DNA from: a virus
IMG/VR virus record: IMGVR_UViG_3300028592_000010
Span: 1 to 60,936 of that record
Reading direction: 5' to 3' (one strand)
DNA: 60,936 bases
In this document: positions 42,823 to 60,799 of the stretch, one piece after another
Position numbering within the stretch: position 1 is the first letter of the stretch
Layout: each line of letters starts with the position of its first letter
The notes under the pieces: generated by a model
The model's input: only the letters and a program-made list of their open reading frames with translations
Databases searched by the model: none
Told to the model about the DNA's origin: nothing
Program-made: the position numbers and the translations under genes

Positions 42823-43620
42823 GTGACTGAGCCCTGTGACTGGACGCTCGACACGACGTGCTGTCCCGAGTGGGCTACGACCGACCCGGGGATTCAGGCC
42901 CTGGCCACGTCGTGGTCGAGCTACATCCTGTGGGCCCTCACCGGCCGTCAGTTCGGCCTGTGCGACATCACCGTCCGGCCGTGCTACCGGCGCTGCACGC
43001 CACGCTCGTACGCCACCTTCGGGGTCTGGATGGAGTCCCCGTACGGGTCGGGCAACGGCTGGCTGCCGTTCGTGGACGACGTGGGCGAGTGGCGCAACTG
43101 CGGCTGTTGCGGCGTGTGCTGCTGTGGCGCCTCGTGCGAGGTGTGGCTTCCGGGCCCGGTCGCCTCGGTGACCTCGGTGCTGGTCGACAACGTGGCCGTC
43201 GCCCCGGCGGCGTACCGCATCGACAACATGGACCTCCTGGTGCGCCAGGACGGGAGTTGCTGGCCCGAGTGCAACAACATGGACGTGCCCCCGGCCTCGA
43301 CGGATGGCACGTTCGTGGTCACCTACAAGCGGGGCAAGGCGCTGCCCGTCGCGGCCGAGATGGCCGTGGGTGAACTGGCGTGCGAGATCGCCAAGGGCTG
43401 CTCCGGGGGCGCCTGCGGCATTCCACAGCAGGTCCGCTCCATCAACCGCGCGGGCGTGTCCTTCGAACTGGTCAACCCAAGCGACATCTTCCGCTCGGGC
43501 CTGACCGGGCTGGACAATGTGGACAAGTTCATCCGCGCGGTCAACCCGTACGGGCTGGCCCAGGAGGCCACCGTGCTCAGCCCCGACCTGGTGCAGCCGC
43601 GCCAGCAGACGTGGCCGTGA
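42823..43620 (+). CDS. Cys-rich head-to-tail adaptor
   Basis: GTG 42823 gives 265 residues with dense Cys (NCGCCGVCCCGASCE) and an ALTGRQFGLCDITVRPC segment typical of actinophage head-tail connector proteins. A C-terminal SGLTGLDNVDKFIRAVNPYGL also fits. It is the first connector gene after the tail protein. Confidence 0.65.
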   Translation: MTEPCDWTLDTTCCPEWATTDPGIQALATSWSSYILWALTGRQFGLCDITVRPCYRRCTPRSYATFGVWMESPYGSGNGWLPFVDDVGEWRNCGCCGVCCCGASCEVWLPGPVASVTSVLVDNVAVAPAAYRIDNMDLLVRQDGSCWPECNNMDVPPASTDGTFVVTYKRGKALPVAAEMAVGELACEIAKGCSGGACGIPQQVRSINRAGVSFELVNPSDIFRSGLTGLDNVDKFIRAVNPYGLAQEATVLSPDLVQPRQQTWP

Positions 43621-54693: not shown

Positions 54694-55602
54694 GTGCCGC
54701 GCTCCCGTGCCATGATCCTGACCACCATCTGGGCAGACGCCGACTTCGTGGCCCTGTCCCCGGACGCCAAGCTGGTCTACCTGCTGCTGCTCTCCCAGCC
54801 CGACCTGAGCCACCTCGGCGTGCTCTCCCTGGCCCAGCACCGGTGGGCGCGGGCGGCGGGTGGCACCCCCGAGTGGGTGGAGGACTGCCTCACCGACCTG
54901 GCCGCCGCGCGGTTCATCGTCCTGGACGTCGAGGCCCAGCAGGTGCTCATCCGCTCGTTTCTGCGCAACGACCAGGTGTGCCGCCAGCCCAACGTGCTCC
55001 GGGCGGCCTGCTCGGCCATCGCCATGGTCGCCTCCCGGCGCATCGCGACCGCCTTGCTGGACGAGGTGGCCCGGATCAGTGCCGAGGAACGCACCGAGAA
55101 GACGGGCCCAGTCCTCGACGAGATGAAGGCGCTGCTTGGAACCCTCGGCGAAGGGTTTCCGGAACCGTTCGGCGAAGGGTTCGCCAAACCCCACGCGAAG
55201 GGTTCGGAGAACCCTTCGGGGAACCCTCTAGGGGATAGGGGAAGGGGTAAGGGGGTTACTGGAGAGGTTGCGGTTCGCGCGCGCGCGCGAGGCAGCCGCA
55301 TCCCCGACCCGTTCCCGATCACCCCGGAGATGGTCGCCTGGGCCCGGGAGCGCGTGCCGCAGGTCGACGGCAAGCGCGAGACCGAGAAGTTCGTGAACTA
55401 CTGGACCGCCAAAACCGGCGCCCAGGCGACCAAGCTGGACTGGCCGGCCACGTGGCGCAACTGGATGCTGGGTGCCGCCGAGAGGTTGCGCAGCCCGGGC
55501 TCGGCCCCGTTGGCTTCGACGACGGACGCGCGGGTGGCGGCGGCCCTGGAGGTCGGGGAGCGCCTGCAACGGCAGATGGAGGGCGGCGGTGAACCTCGCT
55601 GA
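54694..55602 (+). CDS. replication initiator, lambda O-like
   Basis: The 302 residues start with a winged-helix type domain (TTIWADADFVALSPDAKLVYLLLLSQPDLS, SLAQHRWARAAGGT), the replisome-organiser pattern. The middle is low-complexity and is encoded by iterons and a G-rich run, so the origin probably lies inside the gene as in lambda O. The C-terminal part (FVNYWTAKTGAQATKLDWPATWRNWML) is a conserved phage initiator/DUF domain. A helicase-loader-like gene follows with an overlap. Confidence 0.75.
   Translation: MPRSRAMILTTIWADADFVALSPDAKLVYLLLLSQPDLSHLGVLSLAQHRWARAAGGTPEWVEDCLTDLAAARFIVLDVEAQQVLIRSFLRNDQVCRQPNVLRAACSAIAMVASRRIATALLDEVARISAEERTEKTGPVLDEMKALLGTLGEGFPEPFGEGFAKPHAKGSENPSGNPLGDRGRGKGVTGEVAVRARARGSRIPDPFPITPEMVAWARERVPQVDGKRETEKFVNYWTAKTGAQATKLDWPATWRNWMLGAAERLRSPGSAPLASTTDARVAAALEVGERLQRQMEGGGEPR
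55150..55218. repeat. iterons of the putative origin
   Basis: GCGAAGGGTT-type units occur with GAAGGG at 55150, 55174 and 55197. Each continues into a GGGTT-N5-AACC dyad; the last is a perfect palindrome (CGAAGGGTT-N5-AACCCTTCG, 55196-55218). Spacing of 24 and 23 bases is about two helical turns, fitting cooperative initiator binding. Confidence 0.65.
55231..55255 (+). other. G-quadruplex motif next to the iterons
   Basis: Four tracts of four or five G separated by two or three A/T bases lie within the initiator gene just after the iterons. This is an ideal intramolecular G4 sequence on the plus strand. Confidence 0.6.
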
Positions 55603-56041
55603 GGTGGCCCAGGTGCTCGCCAAGGCGGCGGCGTTCGACCGCCGCACGGTGGGCGAGGCCGACGTGATGGCCTGGTGGGAGGCCATCAACGACCTGGACG
55701 TGGCCGATGCCCTCGTGGCGGTCACCCGCTGGTACCGGGACCGACCCGACTGGCTGATGCCCTCGCACCTGCGGGAGGCGGTGCGGCTGGTCGAGGCCGA
55801 CCGGGCGAAGGCCGAGCGGCTGGCCCAGGCCGAGGCCATGGCGGAGTCGGCCATCCTGCCCGCCCAGCGCCCCGCTGGCGGCCCGTTCGCCGAACTCCCG
55901 CCGGATGTGCAGGCCGACCTCTCCGAGGCTTCTAGGGGGCTTCTCCGGGCGGTCCTCGACGAGCGGTTCTCCGAGCCGCCACGTCCGGCGCCCTCCGTCC
56001 TCGATGTGTATGCTCGGCCGAGACAGGAGGGGGAGCGATGA
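55589..56041 (+). CDS. helicase loader-like protein
   Basis: GTG 55589 overlaps the initiator end. AAAFDRRTVGEADVMAWWEAINDLDVADALVAVTRWYRDRPDWLMPSHLREAV is the pattern of phage G40P-loader/inhibitor type domains that recruit the host replicative helicase. The C-terminus is a loose helical region. Position directly after an O-like gene parallels lambda P. Confidence 0.7.
   Translation: MNLAEVAQVLAKAAAFDRRTVGEADVMAWWEAINDLDVADALVAVTRWYRDRPDWLMPSHLREAVRLVEADRAKAERLAQAEAMAESAILPAQRPAGGPFAELPPDVQADLSEASRGLLRAVLDERFSEPPRPAPSVLDVYARPRQEGER
56008..56013 (+). promoter_or_regulatory. -10 box TATGCT, early-type
   Basis: TG-TATGCTC-N4-GAGACA fits the recurring motif closely and lies just before ATG 56038 with AGGAGGGG. 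Confidence 0.5.
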
Positions 56042-56310
56042 GCAGGGCAACTGGACTCACGTACGAGCAGCGCACCGGCCGCATGGAGGCCGCGATCGTG
56101 GCCGGCAAGGGGTTCACACCGCGCCAGTGGCGCCGCCACGAGAAGAAGCTCGCCAAGATCATGCACATGGACCGCCCCGGGTGGCGACCGGCGCGACCCG
56201 AGGAGACCCCGGGGCAGATGGGGCCTGAACTGGTCGTGCCGGTGGAGGCCGACACCGTGTACCGGGTCGAGACCCGCTTCGGTGGCCGGCAGGGAGGGCG
56301 GAGCCGGTGA
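56038..56310 (+). CDS. hypothetical basic protein, 90 aa
   Basis: ATG 56038 overlaps the previous stop. The basic helical first half (RQWRRHEKKLAKIMHMDRPGW) and strand-like second half suggest a small nucleic-acid-associated protein. No family is recognised. Confidence 0.6.
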   Translation: MSRATGLTYEQRTGRMEAAIVAGKGFTPRQWRRHEKKLAKIMHMDRPGWRPARPEETPGQMGPELVVPVEADTVYRVETRFGGRQGGRSR

Positions 56311-57410
56311 GCACCGATGTGGTGCTGCGCCGCTCTGACGTGCCGGGCGACTTCCAGGCCCAGGTCGAGATGGCCAAGTACCTGGCCGGGTCCAGCCTGC
56401 TGCCGGCCCACCTGCGCGGCCAGCCGGCCAACGTGTTCGTGGTGCTCCAGGGGGCGCGCGCGCTCGACGTGAGCGCGTTCTGGGCCCTCCAGTCGATGCA
56501 CGTCATCGACGGCAAGCTGAGCATGGCGGCCGAACTGATGCGGGCCCTGGTGAACCGGGCCGGCCACCGTGTGCGGGTGGTCGAGCGGACCAGCCAGCGG
56601 GCTGTGGTGGAGATCCAGCGCTCCGACCGGGACGAGCCCTACCGGGCCGAGTTCACCTGGGAGGATGCCAAGGCGGCCAAGCTGACCGGCAAGACCAACT
56701 GGCAGGGCTACCCCAAGTCGATGATGGTGGCCCGGGCGACCGCTATCGCGGTTCGGGACGAGTGCCCGGATGTGCTGTTCGGAATGGTCTACACCCCGGA
56801 CGAGTTGGGCGCGATCACCAACGAGGACGGAGAGCCCCTCACCGACGCCGAGGGCAAGCCGATGGTGGACGCCGTGGAGGTCGTGCCGTTCAACGACGAC
56901 GAGGCCCTGGAGGTCGCCGCCGCACTGGCCAACGCCGACCTGGCCGAGGTGGTCGCCACCTGGCAGCGCACCCTCGACCGAGGCTCGGCGCTGGTGCGCG
57001 TGCCCGAAAGCGATCAGTCACTGGCCGACTACTTGTACGCCCGCCTGGCCATCGAGGCCCAGGTGGCCGGCACCAAGGCCGAGGCGCGCGTGTTGTGGGA
57101 CGTGGCCAACCTGTGCAAGGTCGACAACACCGTCACCGTCACCATCGGAGGCGAGGAGTGGGCGTTACGCGCCTACCTGGTGCAGGCCGGCAAGGCCCTG
57201 CCCGAGGTGGCCGAGCCGGAACCGGAGCAGCCGCCCGAGACCGATCACGCGCGCAAGCTCCGGGAGGACGCCGAGGCGTCGTGGGCGACCCAGGAGGCGG
57301 CCAACCGGGAGAAGGCGTTCGACGATCTGGCCGCCCACCGCAAGGAGGCGGCCGAACGGCTCGGGCGCAACCTGCCCGAGCCCGTTGTGGAGGGGGAAGT
57401 CGTTGAGTGA
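56307..57410 (+). CDS. RecT-like single-strand annealing protein
   Basis: GTG 56307 overlaps the previous gene. Residues 10-170 carry the RecT/Bet-type pattern: FQAQVEMAKYLAGSSLLPAHLRG, ANVFVVLQGARALDVSAFWALQSMHVIDGKLS, then TNWQGYPKSMMVARATAIAVRDECPDVLFGM. The C-terminus is acidic and coiled. It pairs complementary single strands in recombination and possibly in concatemer formation. No RecE-type exonuclease is visible nearby. Confidence 0.85.
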   Translation: MSTDVVLRRSDVPGDFQAQVEMAKYLAGSSLLPAHLRGQPANVFVVLQGARALDVSAFWALQSMHVIDGKLSMAAELMRALVNRAGHRVRVVERTSQRAVVEIQRSDRDEPYRAEFTWEDAKAAKLTGKTNWQGYPKSMMVARATAIAVRDECPDVLFGMVYTPDELGAITNEDGEPLTDAEGKPMVDAVEVVPFNDDEALEVAAALANADLAEVVATWQRTLDRGSALVRVPESDQSLADYLYARLAIEAQVAGTKAEARVLWDVANLCKVDNTVTVTIGGEEWALRAYLVQAGKALPEVAEPEPEQPPETDHARKLREDAEASWATQEAANREKAFDDLAAHRKEAAERLGRNLPEPVVEGEVVE

Positions 57411-57966: not shown

Positions 57967-58358
57967 CCAGTACCGACCTGGCCCAGAACGGCAACGTGCG
58001 CCTCATGCCCCAGCACCCGCTCGGCCGTGGCGTGGGCGTGTCCTACGAGGAGGCCGCCGACTTCGGCGCGCTCGCCGCTGCCGCAGGCCTGGAGCGGGCC
58101 GAGATCACCGGCATCTCGCACGCCATCCAGGAGGCCGCGTTCGAGGTGTGCCAGCGGGTCACGCCCGAGATCCTCAAGCGGGTCAACGCGGCGGCGGCCC
58201 GTCGCCTGGACCGGCTGGCCCAGGCCGTTCGGGTCCTGGCCTCGCCGCAGACCGGCGCGGTGAGCACGCTGTTCAGCGGCTACGCGCGCGACGCGCTGGT
58301 GTCGCGCCAGGAGGTTCTGCTGCTCATCGAGCAGGCCAAGGCGGCCAGTTCGGTCTGA
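57963..58358 (+). CDS. hypothetical helical protein, 131 aa
   Basis: GTG 57963 follows GAGGAGGGACC. It is mostly helical and alanine-rich (ITGISHAIQEAAFEVCQRV, AAARRLDRLAQAVRVLA), probably an oligomer. It overlaps the HNH gene. The function is unknown. Confidence 0.6.
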   Translation: MTSTDLAQNGNVRLMPQHPLGRGVGVSYEEAADFGALAAAAGLERAEITGISHAIQEAAFEVCQRVTPEILKRVNAAAARRLDRLAQAVRVLASPQTGAVSTLFSGYARDALVSRQEVLLLIEQAKAASSV

Positions 58359-58747
58359 TGGAGTGGTACGCGGCCAAGGCCCTGGCCCTCGTGCGGGCAC
58401 ACCAACTGTGCGAGGGCTGCGGGACCGCGTTCGCTGACGACGTGCACCACAGGCAGCCCCGTGGAATGGGTGGAGTCCACGGGGCTGCCGCACGTGAGGC
58501 CCACCGGGGTTACAACCTGCTGGCCCTGTGCCGCCGCTGCCACGACCTCACCGAGGCGGAGCCCGCGCTATGTCGAGCCCAGGGCTGGCTCGTGCCCCAC
58601 CCCATCCAGGTGGCGCTCATCCCGGCGCTCATCGTGCCCATCTACGGGCGGGCCTGGTACTACCTCGATGCCGAGTTCGGCTACCGCCCCTGCAACCAGC
58701 ACCGGGCGAACGGGATCCTGCGCGGCTACGGCCTGGTAGCGCCCTGA
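58358..58747 (+). CDS. HNH endonuclease
   Basis: ATG 58358 overlaps the previous stop. The 129 residues show a zinc-supported HNH fold: CEGC (C18, C21), VHHRQPRGMGG with H30/H31, N53 in YNLLALC, and CRRCHDL (C58, C61, H62). Phage HNH proteins nick or cut DNA and sometimes assist packaging. It is far from the terminase here and lies in the recombination operon. Confidence 0.85.
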   Translation: MEWYAAKALALVRAHQLCEGCGTAFADDVHHRQPRGMGGVHGAAAREAHRGYNLLALCRRCHDLTEAEPALCRAQGWLVPHPIQVALIPALIVPIYGRAWYYLDAEFGYRPCNQHRANGILRGYGLVAP

Positions 58748-59723: not shown

Positions 59724-59776
59724 TTAGGCATACACAACGGGCCGCCGGGGCCCGGGAAGACCGAAGGGAAGAGATC

Positions 59777-60799
59777 ATGGCTCACAACCTGGAGATCCGC
59801 GCAGACGGCACCGCCTCGTTCGTTGGCGCTCGCGAGTCCGCATGGCACCGCCTGGGCAAGATCTACGAGGACCGCGATGGCCTGACCATCGCCGAGGTCC
59901 TGAAGGACCTGGACTGCGGCACGATCATGACCGGCCCGGTTCACGGCACCCTCATCACCGAAGATGGCGTGGCCCAGGTTCCCGACTCCACCCGCAAGAT
60001 GACGATGCGTGTGCGCACCGGCGGCGAGATCACTCCGCTCGGCGTGGTCAAGCAGCGCTACCAGGTCGTGCAGGAGTCCGAAGCGTTCGGCTTCATCGAC
60101 GCGGTCGTGGACGCGGGCGAGGGCATCGTCTCCTCGGCCGGCCTGCTCGACGGCGGGCGCCGCGCGTTCTGCTGCCTCAAGCTCCCCAGCAACATCCTCA
60201 TCGGCGGCGTGGACGCGGTCGACATGTACGTCTTCATCGCCACCAGCCACGACGGCACCCTGGCCACGACCGCCGCCGCGACCCCCATCCGGGTGGTCTG
60301 CCAGAACACCCTCACCTACGGCCTCCAGCAGGCCACCCACGTCTGGAAGGTTCGGCACAGCACCAACGCTCTGGGCCGCATCTCCGAGGCGCGGCGCGCG
60401 CTGGACCTGACCTTCAAGTACGAGGAGGCCTGGAAGGTCGAGGCCGAGAAGCTCATCGCCATCAAGATCACCAAGCGGCACTTCGAGCGGATGGCCGGCA
60501 AGCTGTTCCCGGCCCCCAAGGCCGACGCTGCCAAGCTGAGCAAGCTGGCGCACGAGAAGACCATGGACACCCTGATGGGCCTGTGGACCGCCGACACTCA
60601 GGTGGACATCAAGAACACGGCGTGGGGCGCGTTCAACGCTTTCGTCGAGTTCGAGGACTGGTTCACCGGCACCCGGGGCCAGGACGACGCCCTGGCGCAG
60701 CAGTTCTACACCTCGCTGACCTCGGGCCACGGCACGGTCCGCACCAAGGCCGACTTCAAGGACAAGGCCCTGGCCGTGGTCAACGCGGCCACCAAGTAA
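59777..60799 (+). CDS. DUF932-family phage/plasmid-like protein
   Basis: ATG 59777 follows GAAGGGAAGAG. The 340 residues match the DUF932/TIGR03299 type: SFVGARESAWHRLGKIYEDRDGLT, GVVKQRYQVVQESEAFGFID and PIRVVCQNTLTYGLQQA, then a helical C-terminus. These proteins are widespread in phages and plasmids; the function is unknown. It has the strongest plus-strand promoter in the window and its own terminator, so it is probably highly expressed early. Confidence 0.85.
   Translation: MAHNLEIRADGTASFVGARESAWHRLGKIYEDRDGLTIAEVLKDLDCGTIMTGPVHGTLITEDGVAQVPDSTRKMTMRVRTGGEITPLGVVKQRYQVVQESEAFGFIDAVVDAGEGIVSSAGLLDGGRRAFCCLKLPSNILIGGVDAVDMYVFIATSHDGTLATTAAATPIRVVCQNTLTYGLQQATHVWKVRHSTNALGRISEARRALDLTFKYEEAWKVEAEKLIAIKITKRHFERMAGKLFPAPKADAAKLSKLAHEKTMDTLMGLWTADTQVDIKNTAWGAFNAFVEFEDWFTGTRGQDDALAQQFYTSLTSGHGTVRTKADFKDKALAVVNAATK

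What the first reader, a model, noticed from the sequence alone, without database searches (positions are those of the whole stretch)
55146..55255. Replication origin with iterons and a G-quadruplex inside the initiator gene
Three regularly spaced GAAGGGTT iterons, the last a perfect palindrome, are followed by four G4-5 tracts. The arrangement mirrors lambda ori inside O, but the usual AT-rich melting zone is replaced by a G-rich strand. A G-quadruplex might open the duplex in this GC-rich genome.
Basis: partly seen in the sequence, partly recalled or inferred. Interest (0 to 1): 0.7.

Follow-up and report, generated by a model that had tools for sequence, protein, structure and literature searches.

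The report
Phage replication origin inside initiator gene
A phage of high-GC bacteria appears to carry its DNA-copying start site inside the gene for the protein that starts copying, and where most origins have an easily melted AT-rich stretch, this one and many relatives have a run of G-blocks able to fold into a four-stranded structure.

Summary
The linker of the initiator gene (54694-55602) carries eight 7-bp half-sites (AAGGGTT/AACCCTT; four exact, four degenerate) at 11-12 bp steps from 55140 to 55228, then GGGGATAGGGGAAGGGGTAAGGGGG (55231-55255), the strongest G4 motif in the window.

Relatives support a DNA element. In 123 homologues collected by protein alone, 209 of 233 AAGGGTT/AACCCTT sites in 803 kb lie in the 300 bp after the DNA-binding domain; 21 of 36 genes with at least three sites use more than one reading frame. 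Runs of at least four G4 tracts occur in 51 of 121 linkers (17 of 66 after thinning) against 1 of 1596 control windows, always 3' of the iterons, and exceed synonymous expectation on both strands.

Best reading: an in-gene origin of the pSK41 RepA / SPP1 oriL / lambda-O kind, with a G-tract, strand-asymmetric element where the AT-rich unwinding element usually lies. G4 folding is unproven and not universal: some relatives have (CTCCTT)n or (CAACAG)n there. Replication was not tested, and the closest published replication data (Miko RepA) concern a different protein. New variant of a known kind.

The parts
54694..55602 (+). replication initiator gene (302 aa): wHTH DNA-binding domain (aa 1-155), disordered linker (aa 156-200), C-terminal primosome-type domain (aa 200-268)
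   Evidence: PHROG 3171 replication initiation protein E 1.2e-41, C-part PHROG 3992 primosomal protein E 1.7e-13; AlphaFold2 mean pLDDT 84 with most of the linker under 50; winged-helix matches including 4pql/4pt7/5kbj Rep initiators Z 8.8-9.1
55140..55228 (+). iteron array: eight AAGGGTT/AACCCTT half-sites at 11-12 bp steps (four exact at 55151, 55175, 55198, 55210)
   Evidence: same array in the same place in homologues
55197..55217 (.). perfect palindrome GAAGGGTTC-GGA-GAACCCTTC (third iteron plus inverted fourth)
   Evidence: read directly
55231..55255 (+). G-tract run GGGGATAGGGGAAGGGGTAAGGGGG, putative G-quadruplex in the usual place of an unwinding element
55254..55259 (+). GGTTAC hexamer at the 3' edge of the G-run, moderately enriched in relatives (12 of 66 linkers, 1.7 expected)
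55592..56041 (+). helicase-loader-like gene overlapping the initiator's 3' end (start codon not determined)
   Evidence: 40% identity over 68 aa, E 2e-13, to BearBQ gp89 annotated 'helicase loader'; similar ORFs in many of the fetched loci

Best explanation
Coordinates 55140-55255 are the phage's initiator-dependent replication origin, embedded in the part of the initiator gene that encodes a disordered linker. The winged-helix domain binds the 11-12 bp-phased iterons on one face of the helix (inferred). This strains or opens the adjacent strand-asymmetric G-tract run, which replaces the usual AT-rich unwinding element (inferred); in this phage the G strand may be held open as a G-quadruplex while the C-rich strand is exposed (speculative). 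The C-terminal domain and the overlapping helicase-loader-like gene then deliver the replicative helicase or primase (inferred from relatives). Shown here: the repeats and G-run exist, are unique in the genome, are kept as DNA in relatives across reading frames, and lie in the order wHTH domain - iterons - G-run - C-terminal part. Not shown: binding, melting, G4 folding, replication.
For: Motif uniqueness and improbability with the protein held fixed. A DNA-only scan of IMG/VR for three GAAGGGTT in a row returned 59 contigs where about one was expected by my own estimate; 31 carry the same DNA-binding domain, and where placed the array lies just after it. Protein-selected set: 209 of 233 cores lie in 4.6% of the sequence. 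Reading frame not conserved: 21 of 36 genes use two or three frames, encoding NPS, KGS, EGF, EPF, ETL and others. G-runs: 51/121 against 1/1596 controls; + strand 13 against 0.32, - strand 39 against 4.5 synonymous expectation; 33 of 52 arrays contain a frame-breaking step; 49 of 49 lie 3' of the iterons; after thinning 17/66 against 0/802. The linker is predicted disordered. Precedents: pSK41 ori lies centrally in rep, its linker region is dispensable as protein, and the NTD binds four Rep boxes there (PMC5703833); SPP1 gp38 binds repeats of oriL inside gene 38, with loader gp39 (PMC6316719). In named phages the iterons are found at the same place in GAL1, Twister6, APunk, Whack, Bran and P1312.
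Against: No binding or replication data for this family. The one experimental set found, Miko/Rachaly/Jeeves RepA (PMC7157519), reports no repeats, and Miko RepA has a different protein sequence and no cores. Cumulative GC skew in the window shows no clear turning point at 55.2 kb. About half of the homologues lack AAGGGTT and must use other iterons. The minus-strand G-runs come mostly from one Streptomyces clade, so counts are not independent. Low-complexity linkers can also arise by slippage.
Confidence: 0.83

Rival explanations
1. The G-run works as a strand-asymmetric single-strand landing pad for initiator, SSB or helicase loader, read by sequence and roughly 6-bp period, and G-quadruplex folding is incidental.
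For: Relatives without G4 tracts carry roughly 6-bp strand-asymmetric repeats in the same place: CTCCTT/CTCCTA in Whack, Eyre, DotProduct and Sbash, CTACCA in BearBQ, CAACAG in Bran, CCATTACCAACA in Jebeks. Lag-6 periodicity and |G-C| exceed controls and synonymous draws. The longest G-free or C-free run exceeds the control 99th percentile in 47% of linkers without G-tracts. RK2 TrfA binds one strand of its repeated 13-mers (PMC4081077).
Against: Where G-tracts occur, 90% are exactly four G and loops vary 1-4 nt, breaking the period, which suits a quadruplex better than a fixed register; many linkers show no strong hexamer period.
Confidence: 0.5
2. The G-run acts by folding into a G-quadruplex that opens or holds open the duplex.
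For: G4Hunter 2.72; tracts of exactly four G with short loops, strongly enriched over controls and over codon expectation; absence of an AT-rich zone.
Against: Not universal: Bran's CAACAG run cannot form a G4, and the longest G4-tract chain has three tracts or fewer in 70 of 121 homologues. The G-rich strand differs between lineages. No spectroscopy.
Confidence: 0.3
3. The DNA pattern is a by-product of protein-level selection for a flexible repeated linker, with no role as DNA.
For: The linker is predicted disordered and often dipeptide-rich (EG, PA, SP).
Against: Encoded peptides differ between relatives and reading frames shift inside one gene; rare codons are used (AGG 8%, CTA 3%, TTT 5% in the window); observed counts exceed synonymous expectation.
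Confidence: 0.05
4. The repeats are operator sites by which the protein regulates its own transcription, or a recombination or packaging site, rather than an origin.
For: Iterons bound by initiators can also autoregulate; the palindrome resembles an operator (both inference).
Against: The array is inside the coding region, far from the start, in every relative with it; position and layout match known in-gene origins; the G-run is found on either strand, which argues against an mRNA-level role.
Confidence: 0.08

Closest known systems
RepA_N plasmid initiators (pSK41/pSK1 RepA), Pfam PF06970
   Same: N-terminal winged helix binds repeats inside its own gene; the linker is encoded by the origin; separate C-terminal primosome-type domain; the fold matches include 4pql/4pt7/4pta/5kbj (PMC5703833)
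   Different: No significant Pfam RepA_N match (one of 35 homologues, E 0.25); actinophage rather than Firmicute plasmid; iterons 11-12 bp apart; G-tract run and no AT-rich zone; different C-terminal domain by sequence family
Bacillus phage SPP1 gene 38 / oriL with loader gp39
   Same: Origin repeats inside the initiator gene, with a helicase loader gene beside it (PMC6316719)
   Different: SPP1 oriL has an AT-rich unwinding element; homology to gp38 was not tested here
Phage lambda O gene and ori
   Same: Iterons inside the initiator gene followed by a strand-asymmetric segment (lambda details from general knowledge)
   Different: Lambda has an AT-rich melting zone; proteins not compared
RepA-like initiators of extrachromosomal mycobacterial prophages (Miko, Rachaly, Jeeves)
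   Same: Phage initiator gene, for Miko with 171 bp upstream, suffices for plasmid replication; authors place the origin in or next to repA (PMC7157519)
   Different: Miko RepA has a different sequence and no AAGGGTT repeats
Replication initiation proteins of PHROG 3171/8064 (Gordonia GAL1, Thermobifida P1312, Rhodococcus phages)
   Same: Homologous DNA-binding domain, same iterons, same linker position; GAL1 has GGGGATGGGGTTGGGGAAGGGG
   Different: Annotated only as initiator, HTH or hypothetical protein; none of the papers read describes their origin

Membership tests
In-gene iteron origin (general kind) | Regularly spaced repeats inside the initiator gene, conserved as DNA | tested here: met
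In-gene iteron origin (general kind) | Gene product is a replication initiator with a DNA-binding domain | tested here: met
   PHROG 3171 E 1.2e-41; winged-helix fold matches Z above 8
In-gene iteron origin (general kind) | Initiator binds the repeats and the segment supports replication | not testable with these tools
   needs footprinting and a mini-replicon assay
In-gene iteron origin (general kind) | AT-rich unwinding element next to the repeats (usual, not strictly defining) | tested here: not met
   40-bp AT maximum in the gene is 45%; linkers of relatives average 32.6% AT
RepA_N (PF06970) | Sequence match to the RepA_N domain | tested here: not met
   no Pfam hit for the window protein at E 0.1; one of 35 homologues at E 0.25
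RepA_N (PF06970) | RepA_N-like winged-helix fold | tested here: inconclusive
   4pql, 4pt7, 4pta, 5kbj at Z 8.8-9.1, tied with CRP-family winged helices
SPP1 gp38/gp39 system | Adjacent helicase loader gene | tested here: inconclusive
   similar to BearBQ gp89, annotated helicase loader; PHROG matches have no known function; homology to gp39 not tested
SPP1 gp38/gp39 system | Initiator homologous to gp38 | not tested
   gp38 was not compared
G-quadruplex element | Four or more G-tracts with short loops, beyond chance | tested here: met
G-quadruplex element | Folds in vitro and in vivo | not testable with these tools
   needs CD, DMS footprinting or in-cell mapping
G-quadruplex element | Conserved in all family members | tested here: not met
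   51 of 121 linkers; Bran has CAACAG repeats

The most novel reading that the evidence does not exclude
A large family of actinobacterial phages opens its replication origins not at an AT-rich element but at a dedicated G-quadruplex-forming G-tract run next to in-gene iterons: a G4-based DNA unwinding element in bacteria.
Probability: 0.27. Interest if true: 0.87.

Novelty: new variant of a known kind. Interest (0 to 1): 0.64.

Why it matters
To my knowledge few actinobacteriophage origins are mapped; Wetzel et al. 2020 (PMC7157519) looked for repeats near repA in RepA phages and found none. A recognisable signature, AAGGGTT/AACCCTT at 11-12 bp steps followed by G-tracts inside the initiator gene, predicts origins in phages and prophages of Gordonia, Rhodococcus, Corynebacterium, Thermobifida and, with a related iteron, Streptomyces, and can be tested by synonymous recoding. 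It also raises a clear question: how duplex opening works in 70% GC genomes without an AT-rich element, and whether a quadruplex does it.

Tried and rejected
A1 and A2 alignments were too diverse for the search for related loci, so closer subsets A3 and A4 were used. No DnaA box near the site; the only TTRTCCAC matches are at 43526 and 4078. Cumulative GC skew was uninformative. PDB sequence search with the N-domain profile gave only noise. Transfer of the Miko RepA replication data was rejected because the protein differs. A purely protein-level linker explanation was rejected on frame and codon tests. A role of G4 in the mRNA was rejected as the general rule because many relatives carry the G-rich strand opposite the coding strand. 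'G4 is universal' was rejected. C-domain-only initiators have other repeats and no G4-tract chains, only some G3-tract runs. Plasmid records gave two clear N-domain relatives, without AAGGGTT cores. The IMG/VR chance expectation for the triple array was my own estimate, not a tool result. The perfect GGGGWAGGGGWAGGGGWAGGGG pattern is not specific: 12 of 113 contigs hold the N-domain. Literature searches surfaced no description of this module, but most subscription papers are not held.

Full report
WHAT IS THERE. The window is a 60,936-bp IMG/VR viral record, 69.5% GC. Gene 54694-55602 encodes a 302-aa protein. CGAAGGGTT occurs exactly four times in the window, all in this gene: + strand at 55149, 55173, 55196 and - strand at 55210. 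Allowing mismatches, the array is eight AAGGGTT/AACCCTT half-sites at 55140, 55151, 55163, 55175, 55187, 55198, 55210, 55222, steps 11,12,12,12,11,12,12; its score is 51 of 56 against at most 33 in 1208 other windows. Two bp further on is GGGGATAGGGGAAGGGGTAAGGGGG (55231-55255), the only four-fold G4+ tract in the window and its G4Hunter maximum, 2.72.

IS IT MORE THAN CODING? Holding the protein fixed and drawing synonymous codons from the window's own usage, four or more iterons arise in 10 of 200,000 draws and the four-fold G4 tract in 0.95%. The G-run uses codons that are rare here (AGG twice, 8%; CTA just before it, 3%).

THE PROTEIN. It matches PHROG 3171, replication initiation protein (E 1.2e-41); residues 197-265 match PHROG 3992, primosomal protein; residues 6-105 match PHROG 1701, DnaD-like helicase loader. 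AlphaFold2 (mean pLDDT 84) gives a domain of residues 1-155, a disordered linker at about 156-200, and a helical domain at about 200-268. The linker is encoded by about 55159-55293, so most of the iterons and the whole G-run sit in DNA that codes for disorder. Winged-helix structures match residues 8-92, among them Rep initiators 4pql, 4pt7, 4pta and 5kbj (Z 8.8-9.1), tied with CRP-type regulators, so the fold is shared but family membership is not shown. The overlapping downstream ORF resembles BearBQ gp89, annotated helicase loader.

RELATIVES. A DNA-only scan of IMG/VR for three GAAGGGTT in a row returned 59 contigs; 31 encode the same DNA-binding domain and, where placed by tblastn or HMM, the array lies directly after it. 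The converse, protein-only collection gave 123 distinct homologues; 209 of 233 AAGGGTT/AACCCTT sites in 803 kb fall within 300 bp after the domain, 4.6% of the sequence. Adjacent sites are 12 or 11 bp apart, less often 22-24; consensus GAAGGGTTC; 21 of 36 genes with at least three sites use two or three reading frames. A protein repeat would not shift frame; a DNA repeat phased on the helix would.

THE G-RUN. In 121 linkers, four or more G4+ tracts occur in 51, against 1 of 1596 same-length windows from the same loci; synonymous expectation is 0.32 on the + strand (13 seen) and 4.5 on the - strand (39 seen). Tracts are exactly four G in 254 of 283 cases, loops 1-4 nt, and 33 of 52 arrays contain a step that breaks the reading frame. 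In 49 of 49 arrays with recognisable iterons the run is 3' of them. Thinned to 66 divergent members it is 17 against 0 of 802 controls. The minus-strand form ((CCCCTG)n, encoding PAPAPA) is mostly one Streptomyces clade; the plus-strand form (GGGGAAGGGGTAGGGG) is scattered; presence of the run changes about 20 times on the tree. The linkers are not AT-rich.

LIMITS OF THE G4 READING. Named phages show the range. GAL1, Twister6, APunk and prophiGD13-2 have G3-G4 tracts. Whack, Eyre, DotProduct and Sbash have CTCCTT/CTCCTA repeats, BearBQ CTACCA, Jebeks CCATTACCAACA, and Bran CAACAG, a run without G-tracts on either strand. Roughly 6-bp periodicity and strand asymmetry exceed controls, though not in every member. 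I therefore take the shared feature to be a strand-asymmetric repeat next to iterons, of which the G4-capable run is the commonest strong form; whether the quadruplex matters is open.

COMPARISON WITH THE KNOWN. In pSK41 the origin lies centrally in rep, the N-terminal winged helix binds four Rep boxes there, and the central linker is dispensable as protein (PMC5703833). In SPP1, gp38 binds oriL repeats inside gene 38, next to an AT-rich unwinding element, and works with loader gp39 (PMC6316719). This element works like those on present evidence but is not shown to be a member of either: the RepA_N profile does not match and gp38 was not compared. Wetzel et al. (PMC7157519) showed that repA of Miko, Rachaly and Jeeves suffices for plasmid replication and found no repeats; Miko RepA is a different protein, so those data are only an analogy.

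VERDICT. Observation confirmed and extended. In-gene origin: likely (0.83), by comparison only. G-tract element functional as DNA: likely. G4 folding as the opening mechanism: about 0.3. New variant of a known kind.

Noticed in passing
L007:1-272 against window 55331-55456: A near-identical contig (99.98% over 5164 bp) ends about 160 bp 3' of the G-run, and its first 126 bp are a reverse-complement fold-back of window 55331-55456; possibly an assembly or polymerase break next to the structured origin.
   Followed up: partly
55136-55300: As single-stranded DNA the iteron region is predicted to fold far better than shuffles (z -6.1), probably from the mixed iteron orientations and the palindrome.
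   Followed up: no
55266-55292: A CGCGCGCGCG stretch lies just after the G-run; Streptomyces homologues have similar GCGCGC stretches between iterons and C-runs. Possibly only arginine/alanine codons.
   Followed up: no
L254-L291 linkers: Streptomyces-type homologues use a related iteron, AACCCCCT/ACCCCTTC at about 12-bp steps, instead of AAGGGTT; iteron sequence may co-vary with the wHTH domain.
   Followed up: partly
L008, L012, L020, L025, L034: Initiators sharing only the C-terminal domain have other N-domains and other short repeats in the linker, some followed by G3-tract runs (e.g. GGGAAGGGAAGGG in L025): a possible modular swap of DNA-binding domain plus cognate iterons.
   Followed up: partly
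56307-57407: RecT-like ssDNA annealing protein gene downstream (PHROG 561, E 3.9e-39).
   Followed up: no
58355-58747: HNH endonuclease gene (PHROG 740, E 1.2e-19).
   Followed up: no
59774-60799: DUF932 protein (Pfam PF06067, E 3e-55).
   Followed up: no
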